A stretch of DNA of 64,000 nucleotides from Halichondria panicea (taxonomy: Eukaryota; Porifera; Demospongiae; Suberitida; Halichondriidae): NCBI RefSeq assembly GCF_963675165.1, contig NC_087379.1, positions 2,794,201-2,858,200 on the forward strand, in the 5' to 3' direction. This document shows positions 21,525 to 42,826 of this stretch, piece by piece. A program made the translations under genes and the position numbers. The notes under the pieces are model-generated. The model was not told the origin of the DNA. It searched no databases and worked only from the letters and a program-made list of their open reading frames with translations. Position 1 is the stretch's first letter, and each line of letters opens with the position of its first letter.

Positions 21525-23870
21525 TTACAACTTAGAATCTATGTCTATGGTGTTTCTTGTTGCTAAGTCTTTAACATTGTAGCCTGAAAGAGTTCCATTC
21601 AGTTTGGTGAAAACAGGGATCCTGCGAGGATCAGATACTTCTTCTTCGAGTGGGTATAATCCTTCCATTGCCAGCTGAAAGATGTAACAATACGTTCCAG
21701 GCACTAAAACTAAGTGCTGTCCCTTGTATTTATCATCAGTATAACCAAATGTCTGGTTGCATGGAAATTGTACTATATACGAAGCAGGCTTTTCCAAATT
21801 GTCCAACGAATAAATTGCTGGACAAAAATAGCTCTTGATAAGTTCTCTGAAGTAAGGTTCTTTGTTAGGCCAGCCGTGTAGTCTCAGCCATTGAGAAGCC
21901 ACCATCTCAGCATGATGTGGTTGGAGCCTTCCGAGAACATACCCCTCTGGAATCATGTCAGCTAACACATCGAGAGCACCTTGCAGGGACCTAAAGTTGA
22001 ATGAGGGATTACTACACTATTTAATGGTACCAAAATAATTATACAAATAAAATACCAGATACAATAGGATCCTGGGGACATACCCATTCCGACGAATATC
22101 CATTACATCATTCAAGACAACAGATGTTCTTTCGTGGATACATTTCAATCCATCATTCTGAGAAGTGGATCCGATAGGTCTGAGATGCTCAAGTAGATAA
22201 TCAGCATGCTTGTCTTCTATACCTATAATAACAAAAGTGACTACAGCATTGACCTAGAAACAAGATGCACATAGAGCTTCACCACACACAGCAAAACTAT
22301 GACTTTTTACTGTAAAATTACTTAAAGCAACGATCAGTTCGATTAGAAAAACAGTGTGAAGAACGCCTACAAGTTTAAACTATAAGTAGCCTAACCACTG
22401 TCTCATTAGCAGTTAAAGCAGTCCATGAAAGTGTCTAGTGCGCTCAAACAGCTCATTTTTGTCTCCACACACACACACAAACCGACACAACACACACTAT
22501 ACCCCTGATGCACGCTTGAACACACACAGGCCGGGTAATAATCGGGGCACCTTTGGGCAGTATTAGCACTAAGCATAATTCTAGAATAGGCCTAGTTAGA
22601 GGTGTGATTAGGAAGTGGTTTACCGTATAATACCTCGATTTAAGGTAACACTTTTAATAATCATAGATATAGCTTCTTTTGGAGGTTAAAAAATTGAGGT
22701 TGAAGTTCTGGTGTCGCATATTTAGAGTGTCACATCTAATTGGAGGTAACTCCACTTAGTCTCGATTTCCGGCCGCATAAAAACATGTATTTTCCAGTGG
22801 GCTATAATCGAGGCTAGGATGTGACTCTCAACCTCTATTTAGGACGCGACATTAAAATGCAGTGGAACCCCTCTATAACGGACACCTTTGGGGAACAATG
22901 TTTTGGCCTTTTTACAGAGATGGCCTTTGTTGAGAGGTTGTTTTGTACACAAACAGTTCATTTGGGACCTGGGTGCCTGGCCGTTATATAGCAGCTGGCC
23001 TTTATTCGGAGGTGGTTGCAGAGGTTCCACTGTAATTGTCATCGCAGCTGTCGCTACTTTTAGAGGTCAGAAAATTACCTGAGCTCGAGGGTGTCGCATA
23101 TCTTTGGAAGGTCGCCTTAAATCGAGATCTACAATGTCATGTGATAAAAACCCTAACTGGGCCAGGCATATATGAAAAATATTACTCCAGCCGCCGTCAG
23201 CTGCATCACAACTGTTTTCCCCTTTTAGCTAATTATTTCCGATAGACAAGAATGCTCTTTCGATTAGACTATAAAAGATAATAAGTACAATTTATGCCGA
23301 GGACATTGATATTTTAGAACTATTCACGTTGGAACTCCTGTCTCTTCCCCCAGGTGACCAGATCCGCTTCAGTGAGCACAGTGAGAAGAGCCTCACTAGA
23401 TGTGGCATATGCACCAATGTCCGACACCTGCAACAATAACAGGCAACAGCATACAGTTCACTTTAACATGGATTGTAATACTCACATCTGAGCGTCTTGG
23501 CCAAATATATTGACAGACTACAGCAGTAAATTCTGGCCATTTGTCCACATAGAAGTTAGCCTTCAGCCGTCCTTTGAGGGTATTTCTTAGAGATCCGATT
23601 ATCTGGCTTGACGTATTAAAATAATATTAATATAATAGATTCTAATACCGTAAGACCTTTAAAAAGGCGATAATTACGAAGCCAGAGGTCGCTTCTTCTA
23701 GAGGTTTAACGCAGCTGTCGTCTTAAGACCTAGACCTGGCATTTAATTTATAAGCAGACTCCAGATATTAAATTATAAGTATGACTCACAGAGAGAGATT
23801 TTGGGACTGCAGACTGAAGACTGTCAATCAGTTGCTGGTAGCAGTCATCTGTTACTAGATGTGCTGGCAT
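21525..23870 (-). CDS. GLYAT-like N-acyltransferase paralog 1 (GNAT superfamily)
   Basis: Five coding exons on minus: 23870-23790, 23602-23486, 23427-23328, 22222-22084, 21990-21525, with frame continuity through all junctions, giving 300 residues, close to animal glycine N-acyltransferases (about 295). The N-terminal half contains VDKWPEFTAVVCQYIWPR (about residues 47-64), which fits the GLYAT N-terminal domain. The C-terminal half has the GLYAT hallmark IPEGYVLGRLQPHHAEMV (about 162-179), then SYIVQFPC and FGYTDDKYKGQH. This last stretch is the acyl-CoA loop, but the usual R-G-K-G is K-G-Q-H, so substrate or activity may differ. The family conjugates acyl groups from acyl-CoA to glycine or other amines. 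Exon sizes 117, 100 and 139 recur exactly in the paralog at 31129-33768. A pogo-like MITE lies in intron 3. Confidence 0.82.
22860..23032. mobile_element. Pogo-like MITE, diverged
   Basis: CAGTGGAACCCCTCTATAAC at the left and GGTTCCACTG at the right are inverted ends of the type seen at 10177-10485. TA follows the right end; the left flank is TG, so the target duplication has decayed. It lies in intron 3 of the first GLYAT-like gene. Confidence 0.6.
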
Positions 23871-24284
23871 CTCTCTGGAAGTTCTAAAGAATTTTAACAA
23901 ATTAAAATGGGACAGTGTGACACGCCCTTCAATGTCTTGGCTCGATTACTAGCCCTCGGTCATACTTGAATTACTACATGTATAATTATATAATTATGTA
24001 AAAAGACTATAATACGCCTCATTCACTAGCCCTGGGTCATACTTTAATACACGTAACGTTGTTCCCAGGCTTTAATAGAACAAAGTTGAAAATACCGGTA
24101 CATAGCGACAGCGTTATTTTAGAGACAAGTCACAACTCGCTAAACTTAATTACATGTAGCTTTTTGCATTTTCCCTGTCCCAAACTTCAATAATATGCAT
24201 AGCAATTAATTACTCCAATAACATTTTGAAGCTAAATCAACGACAACGATCACAATTTTTCAGTCCACAATTTTCCTAATTTAT

Positions 24285-27110
24285 TCAATGCCGTTGCCTG
24301 AGAGAAGAGTCAGAAGAACCATCATCAGAACTAGAAACGGATGTGGATAACACATCACCAGTTTCCAGGATATTACTGCTAACCGGATCTGTAGTACCTG
24401 CAGAAAACAATAACAGTACGTTACTGCACGCATGAATGTCCATACGTTCAACTGCACGCATGAATGTCCATATACGTTCAATGCATATAATTATACTATT
24501 CATCTCTATATATAGCTACATGAAACTATATACGTGTGTGAATGACGAGGCTATCTTAATTTCATAGTCACTTATTACCTGATTTAAAAATCCTCCTATG
24601 GCAGCACAATACAATCACAGGTAACAACAGTAGAATCACACCCAGCACCCAACCAACCACCTCTGAGATGGTAACTGCAGGTGAACGACAAAAAAAATCA
24701 ATACACACATTTCGGAATCACTTCCAACTATTGTAAAACTCCGATTAAAGGTTAAACTTAGTCTTAGTTCAGAAAGATGCATAATTATGACTGATGGAAT
24801 CACCTTGAGAACAGTTGCACTGAGCATCACCAGCTGGCTCAAAAGTCCCGTTGACACAACGAGTGTTGTTGTCTCCAAAAATCATGCAATCAGCATTACA
24901 GTGAATATCCAGCTGTGTGTTGTGAGGGACCAACACACCTTGCGACACTTCACCCATGGTTGAGTTTAGCCATGCTCCAGAGGCATTAATAGAATTTGTG
25001 TTGCACTCTGAAAGTATTAGCTGCCACTGATCACTTTTACTAATTTCCACTCCTTCGTTATTAAAGACCACAACAGAAAAACAATTCGAAAAGCTTTCTG
25101 TATGAATACATGTCTTGTAGTTTGCCTGTAGGGTATAATTGTCTGTGGTTGTTTCTGAAGCATTCTCCTCACAAAAGCCCCTGGAGAATCGGAGTTGAAG
25201 TTGAAAGGATGCTGCGCTCTCAGTGCAGAAGCTGTTGATGGAGATTTGTACGCACTGCTCTTTAGTTAAAACGTGTCTTAGGTCAATACCAGTGATCAAT
25301 TCATCTGCATGTAGTATAATTATGCGAGGAAATTAAACTACAGTATAGTATTCACAGTAACCATTTCACACACATAAAATAGCTGTCATGCATGAATACA
25401 CAGAGATTGCATGAGATTGTACATTATATACCTGAGAATGGAAAGGATTCACTGGGAATTTTTTCAGCTGCTGTTTCCACTACTACCAAGATGCTTTTGG
25501 TATTTCCTGTCAAATTAGCAGCTTGGAGAAATGAGGAGTTGAAAGAATGTTCCCTAACATGTGCACCAGGGAGAAACAGTCTTCGAGTGGTTCGGTTATC
25601 TGATATTATGAGCGTGAAACCTTGGACTTCTGGGAGCATACTGGGGTCGATAACTTGGGGAGGAATGTACTGTGTATGCATAGAAGCCATGTGTTACGGT
25701 ATACTGAACATGTCATTTGCCTATAAGGGTCAAAACATAGGTTGCATTCTTTTGAGTTGTAAAAGTACATATACTATAAGCGATAGGATGTTAGAGGCTA
25801 TCAATAGTGCTGCATATCAGCCATACACCTGTGTCTATCGCATGCAAGGAATCTACAGCTGCTTACATTCCACTCCACGTGAATTGTACGAGGCTCCACT
25901 TCCTCTGTGCAAAGTATGGAGACTCTGACGCTAGTAGGACGTGTATCTGCAATTGATACATGTGCATAATCACCAAATGCAATAAATAATTCACCATCAA
26001 TAATGCTAATGTTTGTGAGGGGAGGGCTCTCCAGTCCACAATCCTCTGTCACCGTCCTGACCTCAGAGACACAAGTCTGTCCATTAGCTAGCCATCCAAT
26101 GCATGAAGCAGTGAAGGTCGTATTGCTGACTAATTCTGAGTGTGGGCAGGTGCCACAACCTTGAGAGAAATACAGCAGGTAGCCTCGTATTCCACCAATC
26201 ACTGGGTTTGCCGGAGGAGTCCAGTCCAATCGAAGATTTCTGTTCATTGGGAAAGTCAGGTTGGCTTGGGCTGGTGGGTGAGGCCGAACTGCATAAATCA
26301 ATTAATTGTGTGTACATTTCAATCACATTTTAAATACCTCCTACTCTGATGACAAATTGTTGATAAGGTTCTGCCCCAGTTAGGTGTTGTTGGCATAGAA
26401 TCGTACCACCGTTCATACTGCTGTTAGCAGTGAAGGAGAGAACAGATAAGTAGCCATTCCTATTGCAGGTGATGTTTGCAAAGTAAGGTCCACATGTTGC
26501 ATCATTTTGTCCTTCTGCAGAGCACGTTTGTCCCAATGCAAATACAATGAGATTGGTTTGTCCAGTGTTGATCCCCGAGCAAATAAAACTCGAGTTTTTG
26601 CCTGTCCATTCCATTGAGCCTCTCTGGAGAGGTGCTTGGCAATCACAGGAAATGGGCTCTCCTTCAGCCAGGCAGCTCTCATTCAATGCATTAGCTGTAC
26701 ATGCAACAAAGATATAGTTCTAGTTATAGTCATAGCATACATTCAACTAACTGACACAACTGACCTCTTACATGCAACAAAGAGTTAGTTAGTTTTATAT
26801 CTAGTCGTAGCCGGCATACATAATTATATACATTCAACCAACTGCATGCATGACAACTGACCTTTTAGCTTTCTGCTACAGCTTGAAAAATGGGTGAGAA
26901 TCAGTAGTATTCCCAGGGAGAGGAAGATTTGGAGTCCTACAGCTGAATGCAAGGTATACATACAGAGCAGTCATTTGGATTTTTAACTGGCTACCTGATA
27001 ATCAGTTTAGACTAGATCTAGATCTATATAATTATGGTTCAGAAAATACACACAGGCTGACTCTCTACTGAATAACAACTGCAAGCTATATATGACTTAC
27101 AGTGCATCAT
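24285..27110 (-). CDS. Type I membrane receptor, Ig + two FN3-like domains, Ser-rich tail (intact)
   Basis: Nine coding exons on minus: 27110-27101, 26942-26862, 26694-26338, 26288-25995, 25946-25867, 25669-25432, 25304-24804, 24674-24579, 24397-24285. They sum to 1770 nt with an unbroken frame, 589 residues. MMHSVGLQIFLSLGILLIL is the signal peptide. Residues 31-149 form an Ig-like domain (CDCQAPLQRGSMEWTGK, then GGTILC). FN3-like domains cover about 150-247 (LRLDWTPPANPVIGG) and 248-353 (TIHVEW). A Cys-rich stretch with a degenerate sushi-like end (CNADCMIF, TRCVNGTFEP) reaches 520, then a membrane helix (GVILLLLPVIVLCC) and a 37-residue tail rich in Ser and Asp without Tyr. AATAAA overlaps the stop. 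The intron just before the second FN3 is only about 48 nt. It is divergent from the plus-strand paralog stub at 27329. The ligand is unknown; an adhesion or recognition receptor is inferred. Confidence 0.82.
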
Positions 27111-27328
27111 CTTCTCTCTGGAGAAACTTGGGATGAAATGATTTGGGAATCACAATGCAATGAATGTCATAACAGTTTTGAGCCAACTGTAACCTCGAGT
27201 CAAACCCTATGTTGTCATACCATCCTCTGCAGGAATTTCAACTGGGGAAGTCAAAATGCCACAAAACTGGAGGTATACATAGATCTACCACAAATATACA
27301 TTCTCAAGCAAGCTACTGAAGGAAAGTC
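27111..27328. promoter_or_regulatory. Putative bidirectional promoter between divergent receptor genes
   Basis: The 218 bases separate the start codons of the minus receptor (27110) and the plus receptor stub (27329). They are well conserved with the matching interval of the second block (about 39331-39500), including the stretch AACTGGGGAAGTCAAAATGC. Conservation and position suggest shared regulation; no known factor site is claimed. Confidence 0.45.
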
Positions 27329-27818
27329 ATGTGTTTTCCACCATTGAGGAAACAAGTTAACATTGTAAGCTTCCAGCAAAGCAAATCTGTTTATTCTCTT
27401 CGCACTGGTGATTCGAGCTTACAGTTAATTTGGACTGCTCAGTCATGCTCCAGGAGAGCGTGTGCTTGCAGGAGACATAGTTAATCTTCCATGCATTGTT
27501 AATGACACGGGAGATCAGGGAATAACTTCATGGACTGGAAACTACTCGATATTTGACTGCCCGGATGAGGATTCTATTGCAGATAGGAGAGTATACCTCT
27601 TTCATATTCATTTCAACAACTCACGTGTAGTGGATAAACCGACTTTTTGCAATGACAGAGTATTTGGAAAAATCATCAGCCACAATGGTACTCATTATGT
27701 GTCTGTACTCACAGTTATAACTACTCCTGCTATGAACGGAGGACTTATTTATTGCCACGTGCATGTTAATTCACGCTGGATGCATTTTCTGGAGAAGTGA
27801 AACTTAACTTGGTTGGAG
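27329..27818 (+). pseudogene. Dead exon-1 stub of the plus-strand Ig/FN3 receptor
   Basis: Nearly identical to exon 1 of the intact gene at 39501-39990 but broken. Eight bases are missing in the signal-peptide region (after AAAGCAAATC), which shifts the frame. The Gln codon after the signal peptide has become TAA, and near 27760 the sequence differs by a 5-base length change. The Ig coding stretch after the stop (GITSWTGNYSIFDCPDE) remains readable. None of exons 2-6 is present: similarity to the intact locus stops at about 27890, where a dispersed repeat begins, so the deletion breakpoint lies at a mobile element. Confidence 0.85.
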
Positions 27819-27947
27819 GTGAGTGCACTATACCAAGTATATAATTGTAGAGCTATAATAATTAGATGCCGATTTAGAGCTATAGTATAGTCTGTACTGA
27901 AAGCACCGCAGGTGCTGATGCCTCGGTGGAGATTCCAAAGCTACATA

Positions 27948-28952
27948 AGAGTAAGGCATCTATAATCAGACACAATGGATGTTTAAACACTAAGAAACAA
28001 GCAGTGATAAAAATTCTTTTGCACCATCTGATCAAGCATGTGTTACTATGAATGTATGCAAAAAAAGAATTGATAAATATCAACTACTAAGTCTTCAAGA
28101 GCTGAAAATGTGCTAGTGTCTGATAAATGGTGGTAAGAACAGACAAAAAAATCGATCATCAGCTGAGAGTCACTAGTAATTATGTAAGGACAATAACTAA
28201 ACAATAAAACCCCCAAAGTTGGAGTTGCAAAACGCTTGTATATGTCCATGCAGCAATTATTTCTGCTGAATCACTCGCATATCAATGATGGGGTCAAAGG
28301 TAAAAGGTTATTGGCATCTCACGTACAACTACCAAAAAACATTTAACCTTTGGCCCCATCCAGTTACACGTGATGCCAAGAACATTTGACCTTTGACCCC
28401 AATCGCTGTCTGATCATTGATACGTACGCGAGTGACTCAGCGGAAATAATTACTGCATGGACATACAAGCATTTTGCAACTCCAACTTTGGGGGTTTTAT
28501 TGTTTAGTTATTCATGTCCTTACATAATTACTATGTGACTCTTAGCCTCGACCCCAGGCCGATCCGTCTCCAATTGAACGCTAGGTCGCCTCCTCGGCCT
28601 GGTATTGATTGTATCTGGGCGTGACCGGAAACTGGTACATACATGTAGTTAGAATTATTTGTGCTGTAAAATCTTCAGTTCATCAGTTGCATGGCTAAAA
28701 ATACAGTGATATAATGACGGACACTAGAAATTAATACTGTTAGTCCATGTGGGAAATCGAGATAATGGCAGTACTGCGTCCATAATAATGGTCTAATCAA
28801 GCGCTTGTATAAATTGTGTAGTCAATCAAAGGTAGCAGAAACTTGAGAACCTATAGGTCTGTTCTTTCACAAGAGTGATGCTCCTTCTTCCTTCACACAA
28901 GACAGCTCACACTCTATAGCTATATCTCTGACAATTATAGATGCCTTACTCT
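27948..28952. mobile_element. 1-kb TIR element with AGAGTAAGGCATCTATAAT ends
   Basis: The left end AGAGTAAGGCATCTATAAT is repeated inverted as ATTATAGATGCCTTACTCT at the right end. Its boundaries are set independently by the uninterrupted copy of the host repeat at 11105-11690. It has no protein-coding frame, and its centre is the long foldback at 28166-28542. Confidence 0.7.
28166..28542. repeat. Long foldback with arms of about 150 bp
   Basis: 28166-28310 (AATAAAACCCCCAAAGTTGG and neighbours) is the reverse complement of about 28395-28542 (CCAACTTTGGGGGTTTTATT and neighbours) with scattered mismatches. A shorter inner repeat around GGGGTCAAAGGT / ACCTTTGGCCCC sits between. Transcripts could form a long duplex. 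Confidence 0.75.
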
Positions 28953-29320
28953 AATATAATAGCTTAATTGTATACACATGATGAACATATTTGCATTAAT
29001 TAATTTGCTACATGCAAACTCAAACAGTGGGTAATGAATCGACCATGATTTGTTGTTAAAAACGATCGATGCCAAAATTCAAGTCTAAAATTAATGGCTG
29101 GCTACGTGCTCTTCTGAAAAGGTTGCAATGGCTTCCAAGTTAAGCAAAACTAGGCATACCTCGAGAATGAAGCATTATTTTGCAAATCCACGAATTAAAA
29201 TCCAAGACTATAGAAGCCTATACTTGCACTTCATTGATCCTTGAGCAGCTGTAGCATGCAGTCTATATACACACAGAGACACAGACACACACACACAAAC
29301 ACACTACCGTATACCTCGCT

Positions 29321-30709
29321 TGCTTTTTATATGTAAAACATATTAAGGCCACGTGGTGTTTTAATTAGACCCTGCATTCTACTAGTACTACTTGCATTTC
29401 AGAAATTACTCTGTCCAGCTCTTGATGTTAATATTATGAACTCTGCACCTGTTTGAAAAAACAGCCAGCTTTGCAAAATCTGTGTTCATGTGACCATCTG
29501 AAGGGTGGAGTTGGCTGAAAATTCGCTCTCTGAAACATCCACCTCTCTACAAAATGCACCTCTGTACAAACGCACCTCTCTAAAAAAATTGCACTTGCAC
29601 CACCTATTTTTACTGTATAAAAAACAGCAGCACCAAAATACACCTCTGTAAAAAAAAAAACGGCACATACCTCTGTTAATTTTGGCGGTAATCACCTCCC
29701 ATACGCCCCTCCTTGCAGAATGCAGATTTTCCTAACAAGACCATAATGTGTTTTGGTTTTGTTCAGTTTAATAAAGATTAGGGCCATACTTTTTCTCTGT
29801 TTGCACCTCTTGGATTGATTCCATTATTACGGAAAACATAGCTATCACTAACTGAGTAAAGTATTTTTTTTATCTTGTAGCCACAAACTCAGGGAACACT
29901 CATATAGAGTAGACTACCGAATTTCGTCAGACGTCAATAATCGTCAGCTAAAAGTCAGTAAAATGCACGAACAAAACGAGATTGATTCTAACTAACTGCA
30001 CACACCAATAGGTGGCTATACGACTACTAACCAGCGAAATTTTGGATGGGCCAAGTTGCTTCCAGCCGAAGCTGTGATCACTAGTAAAAACTGTTGATTT
30101 TCGGGGAGTGTAATTTATTTCCGTTTTTGCCAAAACTACAAAGCTAGAGTTAACTGACACATACTGGGCTCAATCTAGAGAGAGTATACAGTACATGCAT
30201 GGTGGAGCAATTGCAGAGTCAGTAAACCTTGCAAAGCTGCATGAGCTAGAGTAGTTTGTATCTGCCGAAAATGAAGTGCTGAGTCAGCAATGAGCCCCAC
30301 CCACATTAATTGTAATCCCCCTTAGCAATGAGCCCCATTGACCCCAGAAAGCTATGGTGCATGGGGCTCATTGCTGAAGTTAACTCTAGCTGTGTAGTTC
30401 TGGAAAAAATGGAATAGATTATACACTCGCCGAAAATCGAATTATTGGACAGTTTTTTCTATAGTGATCACAGCTCTGCTAGAATCTGCTCTGCTGATCA
30501 CAACGCCTCGAGGCATAAAAATGAGTCACCAACCTAAAGCTATAAGTGCATTCATGGTTTTGTTATTACAATCCCCAGCTATTTAATCATTAGCTGTACT
30601 GTAGTCATAGCCTCTCCTTGTAGGAGGTACTAGATAGCTATAGAGCTGAAACAACACTGAAGATCTTGGTGACAAAAATAAAATATACACAACACTTCTA
30701 CTATGATAT
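29321..30709. other. Gene-free intergenic stretch
   Basis: Nothing here looks coding. A run of CACCTCTCTAAAAAAATTGC-like pyrimidine/A-rich motifs at 29530-29690 and a duplicated AGCAATGAGCCCCA phrase at 30288-30340 are the only local structure seen. Confidence 0.5.
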
Positions 30710-30863
30710 CAGTGGCGTAAGAAGCAATTTCTTAATGGGGGGGCTCTAGTTTTTGAAAGAGTAAGGCTATCGACATAGTGCAGCTTGGATAAGTCATCTC
30801 TATACTTAATGGCCTAGAAAGATGGGGCTCCAGCCCCTGGAGCCCCCCCTTCCTACGCTACTG
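30710..30863. mobile_element. Short member of the CAG(G/T)GGCGTA element family
   Basis: Begins CAGTGGCGTAAGAAG and ends CTTCCTACGCTACTG. The flanking pentamers GATAT and AATAT match at four of five bases. It shares the GGAGCCCCCCCTT block with the 550-base copy at 4080-4629. Confidence 0.6.
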
Positions 30864-31128
30864 AATATGATGCACAGTAGGCGTGGATGCTCAGCACAGG
30901 ACTGAGAATCCCAATGCATGGGGAGCTATGAATGATAGTAATAACATCCGCTGGGTTGGCGGGTGTTTGGAGGCAAAACACGGATCAACTTCTGGCATTA
31001 CACAGAAGTGATTGTGCACACATGTTCCGTTCCCAATCCCTCTCCTTCTAAGATACTGCCACGGAACAAAAATTACAATTTGGAGTCTATAATTACGGTG
31101 ATATAATATATATATAATTATATTGGAG

Positions 31129-33768
31129 TCATATGGTTCTTGTTGCTAAGTCCTTAACACTGTAGCCTGAAAGAGTTCCCTTCAGTTTGGTGAAAATAGC
31201 GGCCCTGCGAGGATCAGACACTTCTTCGAGTGGATAAAATTCTTCCATTATCAGCTGAAAGATGTAATAATAGATTGCAGGCACTAAAATTAAATGTTGA
31301 CCCCTGTGCTTTTCATCAGTATAAGCAAATGTCTGGTTGCATGGAAAATGTACTACATACGAAATAGGCTTCTTCAAATTTTCCAACGAATAAGCAGCTG
31401 GACAAAAGTAGCTCTTGATAAGTGCTCTGAAGTAAGGTTCTTTGTTAGGCCAGCCGTGTAGCCTCGGCCATTGAGAAGCCACCATCTCAGCATGGTCTGG
31501 TAGGAGATTTCCGAGAATATACCCTTCTGGAATCATGTCAGCTAACATATCGAGAGCACCTTGCAGGGACCTAAAGTTAATTGAAGAGTATTGGTACAAT
31601 AAACAAGATGCAATTAAGGGTCCTGGGATGTACCTATTCTGACGAATATCCATTACATCATTGAATACCACAGACTTTCTCTCGTGGATACACTTTAGTC
31701 CATCGTTCTGAGAAATGGATCCAGGTGGTCTTAGATGCTCAAGTAGATAATCAGCATGCTTGTCTTCTATACCTGCATAATTATAACTATAGGGGTACAC
31801 ACGGTGCAAGATTCTTGCTCATAGTCCATTTGCGTGGCTTATGACATCATTTAAATTAATGTACATGTTGTAACAGGAGTGCATGAAGAGGAGAATCCAA
31901 CTGTAGCAGTTGTAGTGTAAACCAGGTTACTGTATGCAGGGGCGTAGCTACCATTGTTTCCTGGTTGCCCAGAAACCCCCCCAGGAGCTGCTGAGAAAAT
32001 TGGGCAGGGCTCCCCTATAATTGAAATCATGCAGCCCTGCCCATCTTTTCATGCACGTGGCTGCAAATCAATCATCAGAGCTAGAGATGGCACCATGAAG
32101 CGTTTCACTTTGGCTTTGTCTCAGCTAGTCTCAGCTAGCTAGCTACCTCAAATAAAGAAGACCAAGACTTAAGTTCTAGCATCAATCCCAGTATTCTCAG
32201 ACTCAGCTCTAAGCACAACTTTATTCAGGAAGTATAAGTTTAGAACAATCTCAGCCACATGAAACTTCTCAGGTAAATGACATTTAATTGTGCTCAGCTA
32301 GACTAGCAATACACAATTAATTAACACCTGCCTTTTAGTATGTCTAGCTAGCTTCTCACAAACACATGTAAAAAAGTCAATGAGCAGGTGTGCCCCAATC
32401 AAGAGGGTGTGGCACCGGAAGTGGGCGTGGTCTAAAATGTCGCGGCGCTACTGCGCCGCTGATTTTTCTAAGGAAACCCCTGTCTCAAAAGTCTGGCTAC
32501 GCCCCTGGTATGAGTATGATTATGTCATACCACGTCATTATCAAACCGCATTTTTAAAAATGATATCAGCATACACACACATGGTCTGCTGTGGTTTGTA
32601 CCTCCAGCCCACATTAAATTTTATTCATGGCTAAGTGTTAGTGACGGATTGAGTCCGGGATGTAGAATAGAATGTGCGTGGGAGTCGCATACTCCTCTTC
32701 ATACACTCCTGGTTGTAATGATAGTCCTATGATCATAATGATTGGCATAAAACATAGCTATAGGTTTGTGTATACAATGAAGACAGTGTAGAACTTCGTT
32801 ATGAGGGTCCCGAGAGTCGAGAGTCTGGTGTTGATGTAGACAACATATTTTGAGTTTAGACAGAAGCGCTCAAGATAGAGAAGCAGCTAGCTGGAAACCT
32901 ATTTGTGTAATGTTCGTTTTAGTGGCGGATCGTCACTGAAATGCTCCTCTTGCTAGACCTCAAGGCTGCCTGTGATGTGTGTGAGTTTGACCTACAGTCT
33001 CTCAAGCATCGCTACTGTAAAAACTATAGTTGAAGTAAGTTCACTAACGTCTGTGTGCAGACCTTTGCTGTGGGATGAGAAGTCGTTCAGAGAGTCATGT
33101 AGAATAGTTGTACTGAGTTTAGAGCGAAACCGTTGAAGTATAGAGCAGCTGGAGCAAGTTTTGAACCCTTTATCGACCTCACACTACTACCAATGCATGC
33201 ACTATACCACTACCACTACCACTACCACTACCACGGTTGATCTCGATTGAACCCGATTATAGCCTCGCTTCGCTCGGATAGTCTGAAGTATTGTAATACA
33301 ATTCATGCCGAGGACTTGATATTTTAGCAACACTTACGTTGGAACTCTTGTCTTTTCCCCCAGGTAACCAGGTCTGCTTCAGTGAGCACAGCAAGAAGAG
33401 CCTCACTAGATGTGGCATATGCACCAATGTCTGACACCTGCATGCAACAGGCAACAGTATACATTATAGATACTAGACGTAAATCGAATCATTATTTTGC
33501 TTATGTTATATACATCTGAGCGTCTTGGCCAAATATACTGACAGACTACAGCGTTAAATTCCGGCCACTTATCCACATAGAAGTTAGCCTTCAGTCGTCC
33601 ATTGAGAGCATTTCTTAGAGATCCGATCATCTGAGTTGGTAAAAATTAATAAACTAGATCCGGGCTAACTAAGTCACTCACAGAGAGGGATTTTGGGACT
33701 GCAGTCTGAAGACCAGCAATAAGTTGCTGGTACATGGTAGCAGTCCTGGTCACTAGATGTGCTGGCAT
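31129..33768 (-). CDS. GLYAT-like N-acyltransferase paralog 2 (GNAT superfamily)
   Basis: Five coding exons on minus: 33768-33682, 33630-33514, 33437-33338, 31772-31634, 31570-31129, giving 294 residues. Sizes of exons 2-4 (117, 100, 139) equal those of the paralog at 21525-23870, and the proteins are closely similar throughout (for example IPEGYILGNLLPDHAEMV and WPNKEPYF). The acyl-CoA loop reads FAYTDEKHRGQH, again without the usual R-G-K-G. The last intron is 63 nt, a multiple of three and free of stops, so retention would add 21 residues between RQN and SLQGAL. Intron 3 carries a 571-base transposon. It is the GLYAT member of the second duplicated block; with copy 1 it probably arose by the same segmental duplication as the receptors. 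An enzyme acting on acyl-CoA is likely; the acceptor is unknown. Confidence 0.82.
31937..32507. mobile_element. Non-autonomous DNA transposon, CAGGGGCGTAG ends, 5-bp target duplication
   Basis: Starts CAGGGGCGTAGCTACC and ends TGGCTACGCCCCTG, with identical GTATG pentamers at 31932-31936 and 32508-32512. It has no transposase frame and is inserted in intron 3 of the second GLYAT-like gene. Same family as 4080-4629. Confidence 0.75.
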
Positions 33769-33834
33769 CTCTCTAGTACATCATATACATACTTTTATAA
33801 AGCTATTATTATACAGTCAGATTATGTACATGTA

Positions 33835-34200
33835 ATTATGCCTCGAGGCGTAGCCGCACGAGGGATACGGTAAAGCTGACTGTGTGTGTGTCTGTCTGTC
33901 TGTCTGTGTGTGTATTCCAGCTATAACTGCTCAACGGTTACAATGCAACGAAAACTAACAGCTTCTATAGGCTTCTAGCCACGTTCTCTTGGATTTCGAT
34001 TCGTGGATTAGCAAACTAAAGCTTCTTTCTCGAGTTATGGCTAGTTTGACTCACATTGAAGGCTGTTGCAGTTTCTTCAGAATCTTTCATAGCATCATCT
34101 GTTCCCACAAACTTTCTATTCAACTTATGAGTTAGCCTTGCACTTAAGCGCTAGCTTTTTGTTGGCTACAAGAGTTAGAAAGAGCCAAGCTAGCTAGCTA
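33835..34200 (-). repeat. Dispersed repeat, inverted incomplete copy
   Basis: Starts TAATTATGCCTCGAGGCG, contains a (TGTC)n microsatellite and the block TTGGATTTCGATTCGTGGAT, in the opposite orientation to 11105-11690. Confidence 0.55.
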
Positions 34201-34775
34201 TTTTAGTAGCCATTATTGGCAGACACACCCCTATTCCTGGATGTAGATCTAATGCGCATGCGCGCTCAATACCACGTGTAAGAGAATCCATTTTGCAGAA
34301 TCAGCAATTTTCTTCTTTTGAGGTCCAGGTAAGCCACAAACCAACCTTTTCTTTTGCTTTACTGTGTTTAATGTTCATTCAATTGCTAACACCTATTTGA
34401 AATCATAATTATTGCAAATTATTAACCTTTCTATAACACTCTAATACTTTTGAGCGAAAGCAAAAACATGGCGAGAGGCATTAGCACAGCACCAGCTTGA
34501 ACACTAGTTGTGACACAGAGGAGGTACAACATGGTTGACCTTTTGCTAATGAGTTACTGAGTTACTCCTATAATTATATTGCATTCCTGCAGCATCACAG
34601 GATGTAACGCCCACATGATATTTGTGTTGACTCAGCAGGTATTTTATGCACTGTCAGCGCTATTTTACTTTTCCAAGGCAGGAGACATTTTCTGCTAGTC
34701 TATCAATCTAAAATCTACTGTAAGTGTTACATTAACACATGCAGGAACCATATAAATTCGAAGGCCTACAGCTGT

Positions 34776-35275
34776 TTGTACATTATTAAAAGAAACACTC
34801 AATGCTCTCATGATCTCCACACAAAAAGAACACTTTATACTACGCTTGTTAGATCTATTAACATTTTGTTCGCCATCACAAAAGTGGAACAAATCCAGAG
34901 AAGATCTTCAAAGTTTATTCTGAACCTTTTGCCACTAATAAACTGGCTAGAGTTGCAAGATGTCATATTCGCCGTCACTGAGGTGTCTCTAAAAACCAGC
35001 AGACAACTTCGACATTACTGAGTTCATATCATTCTCTACCAGCAACACAAGACTAATCACAAGCTAGTTCATAAAGGTCATCATCGCTCAAACACAACAA
35101 GACACTTCTACTTCAAAAGATTGGTCAAACTCTGGAACATAGATCTCTCTCACTCGATTTATCGAGAATCAACTCTACAAACATTTTTCTGGGACAGTTT
35201 TCTAGAACGCTTTGACCAATCAATCATCTGCACTTATCACCTAGTTTGTCCCTGTTGCTCTGTATAACTGTATAA
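34776..35275 (+). mobile_element. CR1/L2-like LINE 3' fragment
   Basis: Translation gives KRTLYTTLVRSI, QIQRRSSKFILN, LLPLINWLELQDVIFAV and, after frame changes, an RHFYFKRLVKLWN block, the usual C-terminal order of CR1/L2-type reverse transcriptase proteins. It has stops and frame changes and is dead. Confidence 0.65.
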
Positions 35276-35494
35276 TTATGTATAATAGTATATTCAGGTG
35301 TTCCTTCTAGTGTCAGTATGATCTTAATTTATGACCCATCACAATTATTTTTCACCCTGTCCAAATTAATGTAAAGTCATACTTATTATTATACACTGCA
35401 AGTTTATAGCTCATTTCTTCAACTACAGACTATGCTATTCATTTTCTTGTGTCACAGGATATATAACTACATGTAGGCATTATTTCGAACTTTG

Positions 35495-35672
35495 CGATGG
35501 GTGATCAATTCGCAACAATAAAATCCGCAAAACTTAAATTATTACTAGTATTTACACACGATCTTTGCCAGAACGCAATAGTTAGATGCAAAGGGTCAAA
35601 TTTTCTGCTGATTTGGCTCATTCGCAAATAAAGGTTTTTCACATGCAAAATATTCTAGTAATACGGTATACT
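35495..35672. mobile_element. MITE with TACTAGAATATTTTGC-type ends
   Basis: TTTGCGATGGGTGATCAATT to CTAGTAATACGGTAT, with blocks CAACAATAAAATCCGC and GATCTTTGCCAGAACGCAAT. Inverted copies lie tandemly at 51458-51665 and 51666-51825, which define the family. Confidence 0.6.
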
Positions 35673-36827
35673 GTGGAGTACTGTGATCGTTTGTAGTCTT
35701 TTAGCTAGCTAGGAGAGCAAATTTTGGTGTTATGCTTCCATATATTCTCTTCTTTCTCTGTAGCTACACTCACAATTCCTCCGTGAAACTTGATGATAAA
35801 TTATGACGCGAGGCCACACTTCCTCCAGGTAAATGTGGGCGTTACATCCGGTCGTGCTGCAGGAATGCAATACGGGGGGTAACTTATTAGCAAAAGGTCA
35901 ACCTATGTCGTACCTCCTCTGATTGTGACACTCCCTTCATGCATGTATGACTCATTCACTAGCCCTGGGTCATATTTAAGGCATCATTTTTATGAAAGAT
36001 ATATCAGTTTCCATGATCAAAAGTTATTGATGCACATTTAGCAGTTTCATAGCCGTTGTTCCTAGCCTTCACAAGTATTTGTGATTGTCATGCTATAATT
36101 ATATACTTGACGTACCGGCTCTCCCCTGTCGCTATCATGTTTCGATATTTTGTGCTTTGAGTTTCCCTTACAATAGCCAATTCTTGCTACATTGCGACTT
36201 TATTACACTAAAACTTACATAGGCCTTAACGCGGGTGACTATAGTATTTGCTTCTACACCTGAGTCAAGATCTGCATCAGTGGGTGGATTATGCTAGCAT
36301 ATGACTCAGTACCGAGTTAGTGTTTTATCTCAATGTGCTTAGAGGTAGATTACATATTGAAGGTCTATAATATGGCCTCTATAATTTATATTGCGCTCGT
36401 GGTTTACACTGAGGGAAAATGTCTTGAGTATAATACCAAGGCCTAACTAACAGTTCAGACTCCCACATAATTATAACACTCAGAGTATTTGCATGCCAAC
36501 ACAAGTCAGTAAATTAAACATGTAGATCTAGGTATAATTTCATAGCGTCTTTTTTGAACTGGGCATGCTCAAAGACTATTTACATTCAATGTAATGTTGA
36601 AAAAAATTGCATAAAAATCTCCACAATAACTTTTGAGGTCAATAATCAGTTCAATACGTCTATATATAACATATTTCAGTCTCGTTTGTCTAGTTCGACA
36701 GGAGAACGGCAGAGTCCAATTTCCTGTTAAAAGCTGCTGATTTCCCATAATTCATAGTATAACATATATACAAAGCAATGTATATAACCCATGAAAAAAC
36801 TGAAAAATAGCACAAGTTACGCCTACC

Positions 36828-39330
36828 TTATCTTCGTTTCTTATGGCCAATTTTCGCAGCTATCATTAGAACTGCTATTATCATTAGAACTGCTACCACT
36901 CCAACCACACCAGCAATCACCTCAATTGAGTCTGACAAAAAAACAGCCAAAATAGATTAGCAGCTCAAGCACACACACATTGATTGAAATCACCTTGAGA
37001 ACAGTCGCACTGAGCCTCACCATGCAGCTGGCTCAAAGGTCCCATTGACACAACGAGTGTTGTTATCTCCGACAAGCATATGGCAATCAGGGTTACAGTG
37101 AATATCCAGCTGTGTGTTGTGAGGGACCAACACACCTTGTGACACTTCACCCATAGTTGAGTTTAGCCATATACTCCAGAGGCATTTATAAAACTTGTGT
37201 TGCACTCCGAAAGTATTAGTTGCTGTTAATCACTTGCACTAATTTCCACTCCTTCATCATTAAAGACCACAACAGAAAAACAATTCGAAATGCTTTTTGT
37301 ATGAATACAATGTCTTGTAGTTTGCCTGTAGGGTATAATTGTTTGTGAAGCATTCTCCTCACAAAAGCCCCTGGAGAATCGGAGTTGAACTTGAAAGGAA
37401 GCTGCGCTCTCAGTGCAGAAGCTGTTGATCGAGACTTGTACGCACTGCTCCTTAGTTAAAACTTGTCTTAGGTCAATGCCAGCAATCAATTCATCCATCT
37501 GCAGTATTATATGCGAGGAAAATTTAAATATGTCACTGACAGTATTCACAGTAACCATTTCACAAACATAAAACAGCCGCCATGCATGAATGCACAAAGA
37601 TTGCATGAGATTGTGTGTTGTACCTGAAAATGGAAAGGATTCACTACTGGAAATTGTTTCAGCTGCTGTTTCTGCTACTACCCAGATGGTTTTGGTATTT
37701 TCTGTAAAATTAGCAGCTTGGAGAAATGAGGAGTTGAAAGAGTAATTCCTAACTTGTGCACCAGAAAGAAACAGTCTTCGAGTGGTTTGGTTATCTGATA
37801 TTATGAGCGTGAAACCTTGGATTTTTAGGAACATACTGGGGTGGATATCTTGGGGAGGAATGTACTGCATATAATTATGTGTATGCATAATTATAGAGCC
37901 ATGTGTTATGCATGGTATACTGATTTGCCTATAAGGGTCAAAACATAAGTTGCATTGTAAAAAAGTACATACTATAAGCGATAGAATGTTAGAGGCTATC
38001 AATAGTGCTGCATATCAACCATACACCTGTGTCTATCGCGTGCAAGGAATCTACAGCTGCTTACATTCCACTCCAGGTGAATTGTACGAGGCTCCACTTC
38101 CTCTGTGCAAAGTATGGAGACTCTGACGTTAGTAGGACGTGTATCTGCAATTAATTACATGTGCATAATAACAAAGCAAACAGAATTCAATGAATAATTC
38201 ACCATTAATAATGCTGATGTTTGTGAGGGGAGGGCTCTCCAGTCCACAATCCTCTGTCACTGTCCTGACCTCAGAGACACAAGTCTGTCCATTAGCTAGC
38301 CATCCAATGCATGAAGCAGTGAAGGTCGTATTGCTGACTAATTCTGAGTGTGGGCAGGTGCCACAACCTTGAGAGAAATACAGCATACAGGTAGCCTCGT
38401 ATTCCACCAATCACTAGGTTTGCCAGAGGAGTCCAGTCCAATCGAAGATTTCTGTTCATTGGGAAAGTCAGATTGGCTTGGGCTGGTGGGTCAGGCCGAA
38501 CTGCATAAATCGATTAATTGTGTGTACATTTCAAATCACATTTTAAATACCTCCTACTCTGATGAAAAATTGTTGATTAGGTTCTGCCTCATGCAGTTAG
38601 GTGTTTTTGGCATAAAATCGTACCACCGTTCATACTGCTGTTAGCAGTGAAGGAGAGAACAGATAAGTAGCCATTCCTATTGCAGGTGATGTTTGCAAAG
38701 TAAGGTCCACATGTTGCGTCATTTTGTCCCTCTGCAGAGCACGTTTGTCCCAATGCAAATACAATGAGATTGGTTTGTCCAGTGTTGATCCCCGAGCAGA
38801 GTTTTTGCCTGTCCATTCCATTGAGCCTCTCTGGAGAGGTGCTTGGCAATCACAGGAAATAGGCTCTCCTTCAGCCAGGCAGCTCTCATTCAATGCATTA
38901 ACTGTACATGCAACAAAGATATATATAGTTCTAGAATATAGTCATAGCATACATTTAACCAACTGCATGACACAACTGACCTCTTTATGCATCAAAGAGT
39001 TATATCTAGTCGTATCCGGCATACATACATTCAACCAACTGCACTGATGACAACTGACCTTTTAGCTTTCTGCTACAGCTTGCAAAATGGGTGAGAATCA
39101 GTAGCATTCCCAGGGAGAGGAAGATTTGGAGTCCTATAACTGAAATACAAGGTATATATATAGGTACAGAGCAATCATTTGGATTTTGATAATAGAACTG
39201 GCTACCTATTAAACAGATAATCAGTTTAGACTATAATTATGGTTCAGAAAATACACATAGGCTGACTCTAGTAGTACTGAATTTCAACTGCAAGCTATAA
39301 GACTTACCTTCTCTCTGGAGAAACTTGGAT
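36828..39330 (-). pseudogene. Broken duplicate of the minus-strand Ig/FN3 receptor
   Basis: Aligns by eye, exon for exon, to the intact gene at 24285-27110. Five lesions are visible: (1) a 10-base deletion removes the first-exon ATGATGCAC at about 39312; (2) a 10-base deletion in the Ig exon at about 38798; (3) a 4-base insertion in the first FN3 exon at about 38385; (4) a nonsense codon at 37226-37228 after GVEISASD; (5) a 4-base insertion at about 37036 in the Cys-rich exon. The membrane exon (36942-36828) differs from the intact gene: it encodes VIAGVVGVVAVLMIIAVLMI and a short KIGHKKRR tail ending in a stop, so exon exchange or strong divergence occurred there. No intact product is possible without readthrough. 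The adjacent plus-strand partner at 39501 is intact. Confidence 0.85.
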
Positions 39331-39500
39331 TCGATGTCATAACAGTTTTGATCAGGCTGTGACCTCGAGTCAAACCCTATGTTGTCATACCATCCTCTGC
39401 AGGAATTTCAACTGGGGAAGTCAAAATGCCACAAAACTGGAGGTATATACATAGATCTACCACAAATATACATTCTCAAGCAAGCTACTGAAGGAAAATC

Positions 39501-42064
39501 ATGTGTTTTCCACCATTGAGGAGACAAGTTAACATTGTAAGTTTCCAGCAAAGCAAATCAGTCATTCTGTTTATTCTCTTCGCACTGGTGATTCGAGCTT
39601 ACAGTCAATTTGGACTGCTCAGCCATGCTCCAGGAGAGTGTGTGCTTGCAGGAGACATAGTAAATCTTTCATGCATTGTTAATGACACGGGAGATCAGGG
39701 AATAACTTCATGGACTGGAAACTACTCGATATTTGACTGCCCGGATGAGGATTCTATTGCAGATAGGAGAGTATACCTCTTTCATATTCATTTCAACAAC
39801 TCACGTGTAGTGGATAAACCGACTTTTTGCAATGACAGAGTATTTGGAAAAATCATCAGCCACAATGGCACTCATTATGTGTCTGTACTCACAGTTATAA
39901 CTACTCCTGCTATGAACGGAGGACTTATTTATTGCCATGACTTGTTCACGCCGGATGCATTTTCTGGAGAAGTGAAACTTAAGGTTGGAGGTGAGTGCAC
40001 TAATTATGCCGATTTAAAGCTAGTATACTGATAATAAAAAGACACATGCACTATAGTTGTATAGGCTAACTTGCATTATGTGTAAACTCTTCTCAGCAAA
40101 GCAAAGTACGAAGCTATATAGGTTACTATAAAATAGTACGGAGCAAATTCATTTTCAACAATGCATACTCTTCCGTTTTAATACATGTACACCCGCAGTT
40201 CATCCCAACCCACCCCCTTCATTCAACGTTACCTTCCTCGAAAGTGACCAAGGCACGGGATTCAGAATAGTGTGGAGGGAGCCAAACAATACTGTGGGGG
40301 GTATAGGAAGTTATATAACGGAGGTGAACGACAGCGAGTGTGGTGTCTGCAGCAATATAGGAAATGTGACAGGAAATGAACTATCCTGCTACAACTGGAC
40401 AGCCAGTGGGCAGGTGTGCAATGTACTTGTATGGAGTGTTTCGGCAGATTGTGGATTTGAGAGTGAGGAGCCGGCAATCTTTAAGATTCACCTACAGAGT
40501 AGGTTTCCTATAATTATAAGCAATTATAACTCATCACAATGTGTATAGATTTCATTTTTCGTAGAAGGTTAACACAATCATGCATGCATGATAAATACAT
40601 GCACATTCTGCACTGTTTATATAATTATAATTATACACACGCATTCAGCTCCTGATGCTCCTATTTTCAAGATTGTTTCACCAATGTATTCAGCAGAACT
40701 GCAGACCATTACAGTGAGTCTGGAACCAGCAGAGGTGAGTACAAAAAACGATCATGCTGTACAATAGCTTAAATTACTGAACTATATATAATTATAGCTT
40801 AATGATTATTGTATATAATTATATAGGGACTCCGTGATGAGTATGGGCTGCCAGTGACATATTGGGTGCACATTGAAGACGTTGTGTCTGGTAGTACCTG
40901 TGCTAAACTAGCTCAGTCATGTGCTCCAGATCATTGTGAAGTGACTATTGATCTAGAAGGGAACTGCCAGTTTGATGGTGCTAATGAGAGTGGCCACTTT
41001 TCCGTTAGTGCATTAGCTAGCACCATTATTGGGAAATCTTTGACTACTTATCCTAACGAAATTGGTGAGTTATTGAAATTTGATGTCTATAATTAGCCAT
41101 ATCTGGAGTGCACTCCGGCGGTCATAGCCAGGACATTGCCGACAGTTTATCTTATCTAAAAGTACCTAATGATTTCTGGTTACTTCCAAACTTATATATA
41201 TAAAATTATGATTCACCCGCTTATCATTCTACTGCTAACGACCTTTCATTTTCGATGCATGCCCATAATTACTAGATTCTGTGAATAATCTTGTGGAACT
41301 GAATGTTTTAATGGAACAAGACTATACTCTGATGATAGCTGAGTTTGTAGATGCCTTCACAAAACTTTCACTTCAATATGGAGATACATGTGATACTCTC
41401 GTGTTTGAAAAACAGACCTTCACAGAACCAAAAGACTTCACCAATTGCATGGCACTGTACAACATTCAGCTCTCCGACTGCTTTATTGCAACACTGTCAG
41501 CTGACAATGGATCACTTGCCATCAACATTAGGGGACATTTTCATGGTAGGAAATGCTTGCATGTGTTTTTGTTACCCACATCCCTTCTCAATAAATATAT
41601 CTGTCTGTATAATCATCATTTCACATGATAAGTTACTGAACCTCTGTTTGCTTTGTGGCTATCCTTTCACAGACTATGTAAAGACTAGTGACCACAGAAT
41701 CCTTATCAGTGTCGGAGTCACGTTGATGCTGTCAGTGACCTTTAATCTTGTGCTGATTATTTGTGTAGTGAAATTTCTAAGGAGAGCAAAGCAGGAAATC
41801 CCTACCACCGAGCCCACTGAACCTGCAAATCACAGAGTGCTCAATCCAGTTTACGAGGAAATTGATGAATTAAATTTTGTTGATGCTGGTAATGCTACTT
41901 TAACGTTTGAGCCAGACACAATTCGAAATGATTGCTACCAGATCAAGCCGGATCCTAAGACAAAAAGAAATGGCTGCTATCATCATGTGCTAGATCCCTC
42001 GACAACAGGAAGTGCTTGTTACCAACCTTCTACGACTTCTCACCATGCAATAGACATTCAGTAA
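39501..42064 (+). CDS. Type I membrane receptor, Ig + two FN3-like domains, tyrosine-motif tail (intact)
   Basis: Six exons: 39501-39990, 40199-40498, 40649-40734, 40827-41064, 41276-41545, 41673-42064. Total 1776 nt, 591 residues, unbroken. A signal sequence (SVILFILFALVIRAYS) follows an N-terminal extension. The Ig-like domain reaches about 163 (SWTGNYSIFDCPDED, NGGLIYC). FN3-like domains span about 164-263 (FRIVWREPNNTVGG) and 264-371, then a Cys-containing region to 461. One membrane helix (VTLMLSVTFNLVLIICVV) precedes a tail of about 95 residues. The tail has NPVYEEI (Tyr about 522), matching the classic pYEEI Src-family SH2 ligand, and three 14-residue-spaced tyrosines in C-Y contexts (about 550, 564, 578). 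Intron phases 1,1,0,1,1 match the minus-strand receptor at 24285-27110, so the two are paralogs. A signalling receptor is inferred; the ligand is unknown. Confidence 0.85.
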
Positions 42065-42412
42065 TTGAATGAAAACTGAGGTTGCAAGTTTAGCAGAACT
42101 AACTAACTCATTATAGTTATTGATTATTGTATATAGCTGCACAATATTTATATTGTTGAAATTTAGCTGGAGTGCAGTATACCTATATAGGCCTTGGCTT
42201 GGTAGATTAATGGCCACATGCATTTACTGTGTTACATGCACATTGCTGCATTTTATAAGAGAACCATTCCTCTTCTGTTGCAAATTATTGAAACCTCTTA
42301 GCCTGAGCTCAATGCAGTTTTCAGTTTGCTAGCTGCTTTAGAGTTTGCTCCAAGCTAAGACTGTAACGTGTTGCATGCGCAAGACCACAGGACCCACTAT
42401 ATAGGTCGAGGG

Positions 42413-42826
42413 TAGGGGTTGGTAGATTATCTCGAGATATTACCTATTATGCGATTCTTTTATGCTCAAGTTAACAGCCTATTATTCTTTTCAAATCGCC
42501 TATTATTCACATTATTCCTCCAAAGTACAACATAGACATACATAGTCCAACATAGTCCTCGCACAAGTAACATCAAACTATAAATAATGGCCACAGGATT
42601 CGCTAAATAGAATGCTAAGGAGATAATCAACCACCATGCAGTCTATACTTCCATCAGGCCTACAAATGTTTTTACTATGATTCGTACTGACCTGTACGAA
42701 GTCTTCCAAACCTGCCTATTATTCTCATAATTGTATAAAGGTGCCTATTATGCAAGCATAATTTTCACACACAAAAATGTGCCTATTATGCTCAAAATTA
42801 TGCCAGCATAATCTACCAACTCCTAG
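42413..42826. mobile_element. MITE with TAGGGGTTGGTAGATTAT ends
   Basis: The left TAGGGGTTGGTAGATTAT and right ATAATCTACCAACTCCTA are inverted with one mismatch. The interior repeats CCTATTATTC/GCCTATTATGC motifs several times and has no coding capacity. Confidence 0.7.

What the first reader, a model, noticed from the sequence alone, without database searches (positions are those of the whole stretch)
24285..42064. Reciprocal pseudogenisation of a divergent receptor pair after block duplication
Two blocks each contain GLYAT-like gene (minus), Ig/FN3 receptor (minus) and Ig/FN3 receptor (plus). In block 1 the minus receptor is intact and the plus one is a stub with an 8-base deletion and a nonsense codon. 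In block 2 the minus receptor has at least five lesions and the plus one is intact. So one functional pair survives, split over two blocks. The dead copies stay nearly identical to the live ones, suggesting recent loss, ongoing gene conversion, or haplotype variation in which other individuals carry different live copies.
Basis: partly seen in the sequence, partly recalled or inferred. Interest (0 to 1): 0.8.

Follow-up and report, generated by a model that had tools for sequence, protein, structure and literature searches.

The report
Split survivors of duplicated receptor pair
Two back-to-back cell-surface receptor genes were copied together and each copy then lost the opposite partner, so one intact pair remains, spread over two neighbouring places; the back-to-back arrangement itself is older and recurs elsewhere in the same genome.

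Summary
Block 1 keeps an intact 9-exon minus-strand receptor (589 aa) beside a dead plus-strand stub; block 2 keeps an intact 6-exon plus-strand receptor (591 aa) beside a dead minus-strand copy with a lost start codon, seven frameshifts and a nonsense codon. Corrections: the block 1 stub is exon 1 only; the live minus gene has a transmembrane/tail end unlike its relatives, while the dead copy keeps the relatives' intron junction; similarity is uneven (core about 4% substitutions, minus exons 6-7 with introns about 13%, neighbouring GLYAT-like genes dS 0.18), so later conversion of the core is likely. Misjoined alleles are unlikely. Beyond the finding, the divergent pair is an old module: a 170-kb cluster on another contig holds 5 minus-type and 10 plus-type genes, three in tight head-to-head pairs, and two pair lineages were duplicated with both members. 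Eight of 11 full plus-type genes carry a [DN]PxY[DE]x[ILV] tail motif; it is absent from the other three and from minus-type tails. Best reading: duplication, then complementary degeneration of a coupled receptor pair. By arrangement the nearest analogue is Dictyostelium tgrB1/tgrC1.

The parts
24285..27110 (-). Live minus-type receptor, 9 exons: 27110-27101, 26942-26862 (signal peptide), 26694-26338 (Ig), 26288-25995 (FN3), 25946-25867, 25669-25432, 25304-24804, 24674-24579 (transmembrane), 24397-24285 (46-residue cytoplasmic end counted, no tyrosine)
27111..27328 (.). Divergent spacer of block 1, 218 nt between the two start codons; promoter role inferred
27329..27820 (+). Dead plus-type stub, exon 1 (signal peptide + Ig) only: -8 nt, TAA, +5 nt, +3 nt
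27883..29323 (.). Repeat-element remains directly after the stub (pieces match 11105-11681), where exons 2-6 would be expected
36827..39330 (-). Dead minus-type copy: start codon lost, seven frameshifts, one TAA; its transmembrane exon (36931-36827) keeps the intron junction of the C3:2.34 Mb paralogues
39331..39500 (.). Divergent spacer of block 2; plus side kept (1 substitution in 114 columns), minus side damaged (27-nt and 12-nt gaps)
39501..42064 (+). Live plus-type receptor, 6 exons: 39501-39990 (signal peptide + Ig), 40199-40498 (FN3), 40649-40734, 40827-41064, 41276-41545, 41673-42064 (transmembrane + tail with NPVYEEI and three more tyrosines)
25771..27830 (.). Low-divergence core shared with block 2 (86 substitutions in 1978 columns); candidate conversion tract
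24795..25770 (.). Older, more diverged part of the same homology (122 substitutions in 954 columns)
21551..22229 (-). GLYAT-like gene region of block 1, 83% identical to 31134-31781; dS 0.18
31134..31781 (-). GLYAT-like gene region of block 2
23286..23876 (.). Colinear flank pieces matching 33297-33774 at 81-83%, showing that the duplication was larger than the receptor core

Best explanation
An old head-to-head pair of receptor genes (a minus-type gene with signal peptide, Ig, FN3 and a short tail; a plus-type gene with Ig, FN3 and a longer tyrosine-bearing tail), probably driven by a shared divergent promoter, was duplicated with a neighbouring gene. Later exchange refreshed the core of the two copies. 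Block 1 then lost the plus-type gene (truncation to exon 1 plus lesions) and block 2 lost the minus-type gene (nine lesions), so one intact gene of each type survives in complementary blocks 12 kb apart (duplication, degeneration, complementation). Shown: gene models, lesions, their polarity, uneven divergence, recurrence of the pair elsewhere. Inferred: promoter sharing, co-expression, selection for keeping one of each, and that the two proteins act together in cell-surface recognition, the plus-type passing the signal through phosphotyrosine docking at [DN]PxY[DE]x[ILV].
For: Open gene models. Lesions fall in opposite genes: 3 in the block 1 plus stub, 8 (start loss and seven frameshifts) in the block 2 minus gene, none counted the other way (Fisher p 0.006). 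Polarity by three paralogues. Branch changes: block 1 18 nonsynonymous/12 synonymous, block 2 26/9, in the direction of constraint on the live copy. Pair recurrence: Ig matches of minus- and plus-type genes lie 577, 615 and 625 bp apart head to head on C8, 749 and 707 bp in the window. C8 pair m754/p757 has open homologous exons with the same phases, 5 of 5 minus exons tried and 5 of 6 plus exons by the automatic model, the sixth seen as an open transmembrane exon. Two pair lineages were duplicated with both members; tree clades of partners mostly agree.
Against: Branch difference is not significant (Fisher p 0.29); the test on block 1 alone is p 0.026 with plain site counts but 0.11 if the neutral nonsynonymous share is 0.72. 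Three minus-type genes at C3:2.34 Mb have no plus-type gene in the stretches fetched, and two C8 minus-type genes have the nearest divergent plus-type 25 and 28 kb away, so tight pairing is 5 of 10 minus-type genes and 5 of 12 plus-type, both counts including the dead copies. Three C1 stretches examined gave no tight pair. p875 is sister to p865 rather than p911 (support 72), and m1 and p2 sit differently in their halves of the tree. The tyrosine motif is missing from p865, p875 and p911, that is from two of four full tight pairs. No expression, binding or population data.
Confidence: 0.65

Rival explanations
1. Ordinary birth-and-death turnover in a clustered receptor family: the two losses are independent and neutral, and the survival of one gene of each type is a coincidence with no coupling between them.
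For: Unpaired family members exist: three minus-type genes at C3:2.34 Mb without a plus-type gene nearby and several plus-type genes on C8 without a tight minus-type partner. Constraint on the live copy is only weakly shown.
Against: Five head-to-head placements at 577-749 bp, strands uniform for all 5 minus-type and 10 plus-type genes on C8, and two pair lineages duplicated with both members.
Confidence: 0.25
2. Haplotype state: the losses are polymorphic, and other individuals carry different live copies; the assembly shows one haplotype.
For: Low divergence of the core and many indels (34 in the aligned tract) fit an actively changing locus; such variation is reported for tgrB/tgrC in Dictyostelium (passages and section 7 of PMC12324515).
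Against: No direct evidence; the nine lesions of the dead minus copy include five in the older, more diverged part, which argues that it has been dead for some time.
Confidence: 0.2
3. The dead copies are kept as donors: conversion from stub and dead exons feeds sequence variety into the live Ig exons.
For: Step in divergence at 25770; in the split C8 pair the Ig exon is 64.5% identical while neighbouring minus exons are 81-89%, as if that exon had been replaced or diversified.
Against: No donor-to-live tract was identified in the window; the contrast is partly a rate effect.
Confidence: 0.12
4. Assembly artefact: two diverged alleles joined in tandem, or indel errors in the reads.
For: Highly heterozygous animals can give false duplications; Hydractinia Alr1 alleles were kept apart for this reason (passage in PMC11067881).
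Against: No N in the window; right flanks do not match at all; transmembrane exons differ; GLYAT dS 0.18 and core/outer divergence steps; most lesions are 2-10 nt, not homopolymer slips.
Confidence: 0.04

Closest known systems
Dictyostelium tgrB1/tgrC1 allorecognition locus (PMC12324515; abstract, passages and section 7 seen)
   Same: Paired divergent genes described there as sharing a single promoter, transmembrane proteins with Ig-like domains, clustered family with many truncated copies (13 of 25 pair loci there had shortened tgrB), recombination and duplication around the pair.
   Different: Different domains (TIG/IPT there, V-type Ig plus FN3 here), no sequence relation tested, no polymorphism or binding data here; here the intact members are in two different blocks.
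Hydractinia Alr allorecognition complex (PMC11067881; passages seen)
   Same: Clustered single-pass transmembrane Ig-superfamily genes recognised by predicted structure rather than sequence, with many pseudogenes.
   Different: The passages seen do not describe head-to-head pairs; polymorphism there is shown, here unknown.
Vertebrate paired receptors such as KIR, LILR, CD300 (search listing and starts of abstracts only)
   Same: Related ectodomains with different tails in one cluster; one side with tyrosine signalling motifs.
   Different: Ectodomains of plus and minus type are only 29% identical over 271 residues, not near-identical; no charged transmembrane adaptor logic was tested.
Duplication-degeneration-complementation of duplicates (recalled concept)
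   Same: Complementary losses leave one full set across two copies.
   Different: Here the unit is a two-gene divergent module, so the complementary losses are whole genes, not regulatory elements.

Membership tests
Duplicated pseudogene | Intact relative in the same genome and derived frame-breaking lesions in the copy | tested here: met
Duplicated pseudogene | Loss of purifying selection in the copy | tested here: inconclusive
   block 2 26N/9S, block 1 18N/12S, Fisher p 0.29
Head-to-head (bidirectional) gene pair | Divergent start codons less than 1 kb apart | tested here: met
   218 nt between start codons in block 1; Ig matches 577-749 bp apart in five placements
Head-to-head (bidirectional) gene pair | Shared promoter activity and co-expression | not testable with these tools
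   no RNA data
Immunoglobulin superfamily (V-type) | Ig fold of the first domain | tested here: met
   AlphaFold2 model pLDDT 76.9; Foldseek rows are antibody/TCR variable domains and similar, best E 1.4e-3, none at 0.001; VIA-align best Z 9.6, rmsd 2.8 over 98 residues (a re-alignment of Foldseek's list)
Immunoglobulin superfamily (V-type) | Match to a Pfam Ig family | tested here: not met
   0 of 19 Ig exons matched an Ig family at E 0.1; PDB profile best E 0.035, a TCR alpha chain
Fibronectin type III | Profile match to solved FN3 domains | tested here: met
   profile of 16 exons, titin E 1.5e-8, fibronectin 1.6e-5; single exons stay below the Pfam cut-off, 6 of 16 at E up to 0.1
ITIM/ITAM receptors | ITIM ([ILVS]xYxx[ILV]) or two spaced YxxL/I (consensus recalled) in the live plus-type tail | tested here: not met
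   NPVYEEI has P at the -2 position and no second YxxL/I follows (read from the sequence); some C8 tails read VYYSAV or VYYSVV, which fits ITIM (by eye)
tgrB/tgrC-like allorecognition pair | High allelic polymorphism and heterophilic binding | not testable with these tools
   one assembly only
tgrB/tgrC-like allorecognition pair | Paired divergent genes in a cluster with decayed copies | tested here: met
   criterion taken from PMC12324515
GLYAT acyltransferases | Pfam Gly_acyl_tr_C above its cut-off | tested here: not met
   best of three ORFs 15.9 bits against a cut-off of 27; the genome-wide family search rang nowhere, controls included, so it is uninformative
Mis-joined alleles | Alignable flanks at allelic divergence | tested here: not met
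   right flanks without match, left flank pieces 78-83% apart from one 30-nt piece, GLYAT dS 0.18

The most novel reading that the evidence does not exclude
The divergent pair is an obligate two-protein recognition module of this animal: the plus-type protein signals through a [DN]PxY[DE]x[ILV] tail, the minus-type protein is its co-expressed ligand or co-receptor, an animal counterpart by convergence of Dictyostelium tgrB1/tgrC1. The window catches the module being taken apart into two loci, a live pair assembled in trans, so that allelic combinations of the two halves could recombine, while the live minus gene has in addition swapped its membrane anchor and tail.
Probability: 0.22. Interest if true: 0.8.

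Novelty: new variant of a known kind. Interest (0 to 1): 0.5.

Why it matters
Reciprocal loss in duplicated two-gene modules turns a cis pair into a trans pair; it is a natural test of whether the two partners must be kept together. If the old head-to-head receptor pairs prove to be coupled, they would be a new candidate cell-recognition system in this animal, open to direct tests of co-expression, mutual binding and allelic variation. If the genes are not coupled, the case is ordinary birth-and-death in a receptor cluster.

Tried and rejected
Misjoined alleles: rejected on flanks, transmembrane exons and divergence. A whole-block recent duplication: rejected because divergence is uneven, with the rate control told against an over-strong conversion claim. 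A further 3-nt 'lesion' in exon 7 of block 2: rejected as ancestral. A source for the live minus gene's tail: the DNA search of 24285-24700 found only itself; DNA search of this genome skips common words, so this does not show that no source exists. The plus-type tail as a protein query found only itself at E 0.01; the tail motif was found by pattern instead. Structure of minus exon 7: the model is too poor to use (pLDDT 45.3); a weak sequence resemblance to complement control repeats (E 0.036) was not pursued. Whether C1 relatives are paired: three stretches fetched gave Ig and FN3 matches but no tight pair; other C1 places were not fetched. p852, p868 and p898 exon 1 gave no open exon in the automatic model; I did not settle whether they are broken or differently spliced. 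In counting branch changes I dropped codons with a gap in any of five sequences, sites where the three paralogues differ, four sites changed in both, and two sites that touch a stop. In the lesion count the nonsense codon of block 2 and the +3 nt of the stub were left out. Literature; none of the listings that I saw describes this receptor pair, but the library holds open-licence papers only and I read titles and starts of abstracts, except for passages of PMC12324515 and PMC11067881. The species was not identified; a sponge-like look is my recollection and comes from no call.
Full report
What is there. The window lies at C3:2794201-2858200 of a 131,455,214-base genome of 39 contigs whose species is not given. 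The minus-strand receptor of block 1 reads through nine exons to 589 residues, the plus-strand receptor of block 2 through six exons to 591 residues. They are distant relatives of each other, 29% identical over 271 residues. The first domain has no Pfam Ig match in any of 19 family members but a predicted V-type Ig fold; the second is FN3 by profile. Both have a signal peptide-like start and one transmembrane segment (read from the sequence; hydropathy was computed only for C8 genes).

The dead copies. In the alignment of the two blocks the plus stub of block 1 has an 8-nt deletion, a CAA to TAA change and further +5 and +3 nt, and nothing of exons 2-6 follows: 27831-31100 does not match 40003-46000. 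Repeat-element remains (27883-29323) begin shortly after the stub. The minus copy of block 2 has lost its start codon and has seven frameshifts and one nonsense codon. With three paralogues at C3:2.34 Mb as outgroups, the frame-breaking indels of exons 2-7 are all in block 2. Lesions fall in opposite genes in the two blocks (3 and 8 as counted, Fisher p 0.006).

Ages. The two blocks are colinear beyond the receptors: 21551-22229, 23286-23605 and 23784-23876 match block 2 at 81-83%, and the GLYAT-like genes have dS 0.18 from 15.5 changes at 99 sites. The minus genes have dS 0.086 between blocks and 0.22-0.24 to the paralogues for the live copy. Within the receptor tract the density of substitutions steps at 25770: 86 of 1978 columns against 122 of 954, 0 of 500 shuffles reaching the gain. 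Noncoding columns show it too, 47 of 676 against 60 of 224. But exons 6-7 are also the faster part between block 1 and the paralogues, and introns 1 and 4 of the core are 13% and 10% diverged, so conversion of the core is likely and not proven.

A tail swap. Homology between the two minus genes ends just past the exon 7 donor. A 16-nt sequence at the start of intron 8 is found in the dead block 2 gene and in the three paralogues, and not at the live block 1 gene, in the 298,300 bases held (where two of the six rows are the same places held under second locus ids). The live gene thus seems to carry a replaced membrane anchor and tail; a search with its DNA found only itself.

The pair is an old module. 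Genome-wide searches with single exons gave 12 matches for the minus Ig exon, 14 for minus exon 7, 17 for plus exon 1 and 32 for the plus FN3 exon, mainly on C3, C8 and C1. In C8:750001-920000 my profiles find 5 minus-type genes, all on the minus strand, and 10 plus-type genes, all on the plus strand. Three are tight head-to-head pairs, Ig matches 577, 615 and 625 bp apart; the window's two are 749 and 707. Two minus-type genes have their nearest divergent plus-type gene 28.1 and 24.9 kb away. The pair m754/p757 and the split pair m764/p801 match along both genes, and so do m872/p875 and m908/p911. In all, 5 of 10 minus-type and 5 of 12 plus-type genes in the stretches held are tightly paired, dead copies included. 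The tree agrees in part: (m754,m764) 94 with (p757,p801) 99, (m872,m908) 100 with (p865,p875,p911) 100; it disagrees in that p875 groups with p865, and in the place of m1.

Tails. The pattern [DN]PxY[DE]x[ILV] occurs eight times in six frames of 234 kb, each time in a plus-type tail: 7 of 10 on C8 and the live gene of the window. It is missing in p865, p875 and p911, which form one clade. The live minus gene has no tyrosine in its cytoplasmic end, the live plus gene four. That the motif docks SH2 or PTB proteins is recalled knowledge, not a test.

How it most likely works. A coupled pair of surface receptors, transcribed from one divergent spacer, was duplicated; either copy could supply either protein, so each block was free to lose one gene, and complementary losses left one of each. 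Steps shown: duplication, lesions, polarity, recurrence of the pair. Steps inferred: promoter sharing, coupling, selection. The change ratio on the live minus branch (18/12) against the dead one (26/9) points the right way but is not significant (Fisher p 0.29).

Known relatives. The nearest system by arrangement is tgrB1/tgrC1 of Dictyostelium, paired divergent genes that share a promoter, with duplicated and shortened copies around them (PMC12324515). Hydractinia Alr genes are the nearest animal case by protein kind, clustered Ig-superfamily genes with pseudogenes (PMC11067881, passages). Neither is a test of membership, since polymorphism and binding could not be examined. I therefore file it as a new variant of a known kind: birth-and-death of clustered receptor genes, with the twist that the unit is a divergent pair and the losses are reciprocal.

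Noticed in passing
window:38595, 38389, 37026 and genome-wide: Three of the 4-nt insertions in the dead minus copy create TGCATG or TGTATG; TGCATG is 3.1 times (window) and 3.5 times (C8 170 kb) more common than its dinucleotide make-up predicts.
   Followed up: partly
G000:C8:756495-756852 against 773014-773356: In the split copy of a C8 pair the minus-type Ig exon is 64.5% identical while neighbouring minus exons are 81-89%, as if the Ig exon had been replaced or diversified.
   Followed up: no
window:36827-36931 and L005, L006: Intron 8 junction shared by the dead block 2 gene and three paralogues but not by the live block 1 gene.
   Followed up: yes
window:44914-45327: Third GLYAT-like ORF on the minus strand, the only one of three to reach Pfam Gly_acyl_tr_C (E 0.016, below cut-off); the first two ORFs read KGQHL or RGQHL where it reads RGKGL (by eye).
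   Followed up: no
window:28170-28540: Long inverted repeat, a foldback-like element, within the repeat remains after the plus stub (by eye).
   Followed up: no
window:17938-18392: Tandem array of an 84-nt unit, 5.3 copies, 93% matches.
   Followed up: no
G000:C8:852211, 868508, 898644: Exon 1 of three closely related plus-type genes gave no open exon in the automatic model, and a search hit at 898605-898982 spans two stops; further decayed or differently spliced copies.
   Followed up: no
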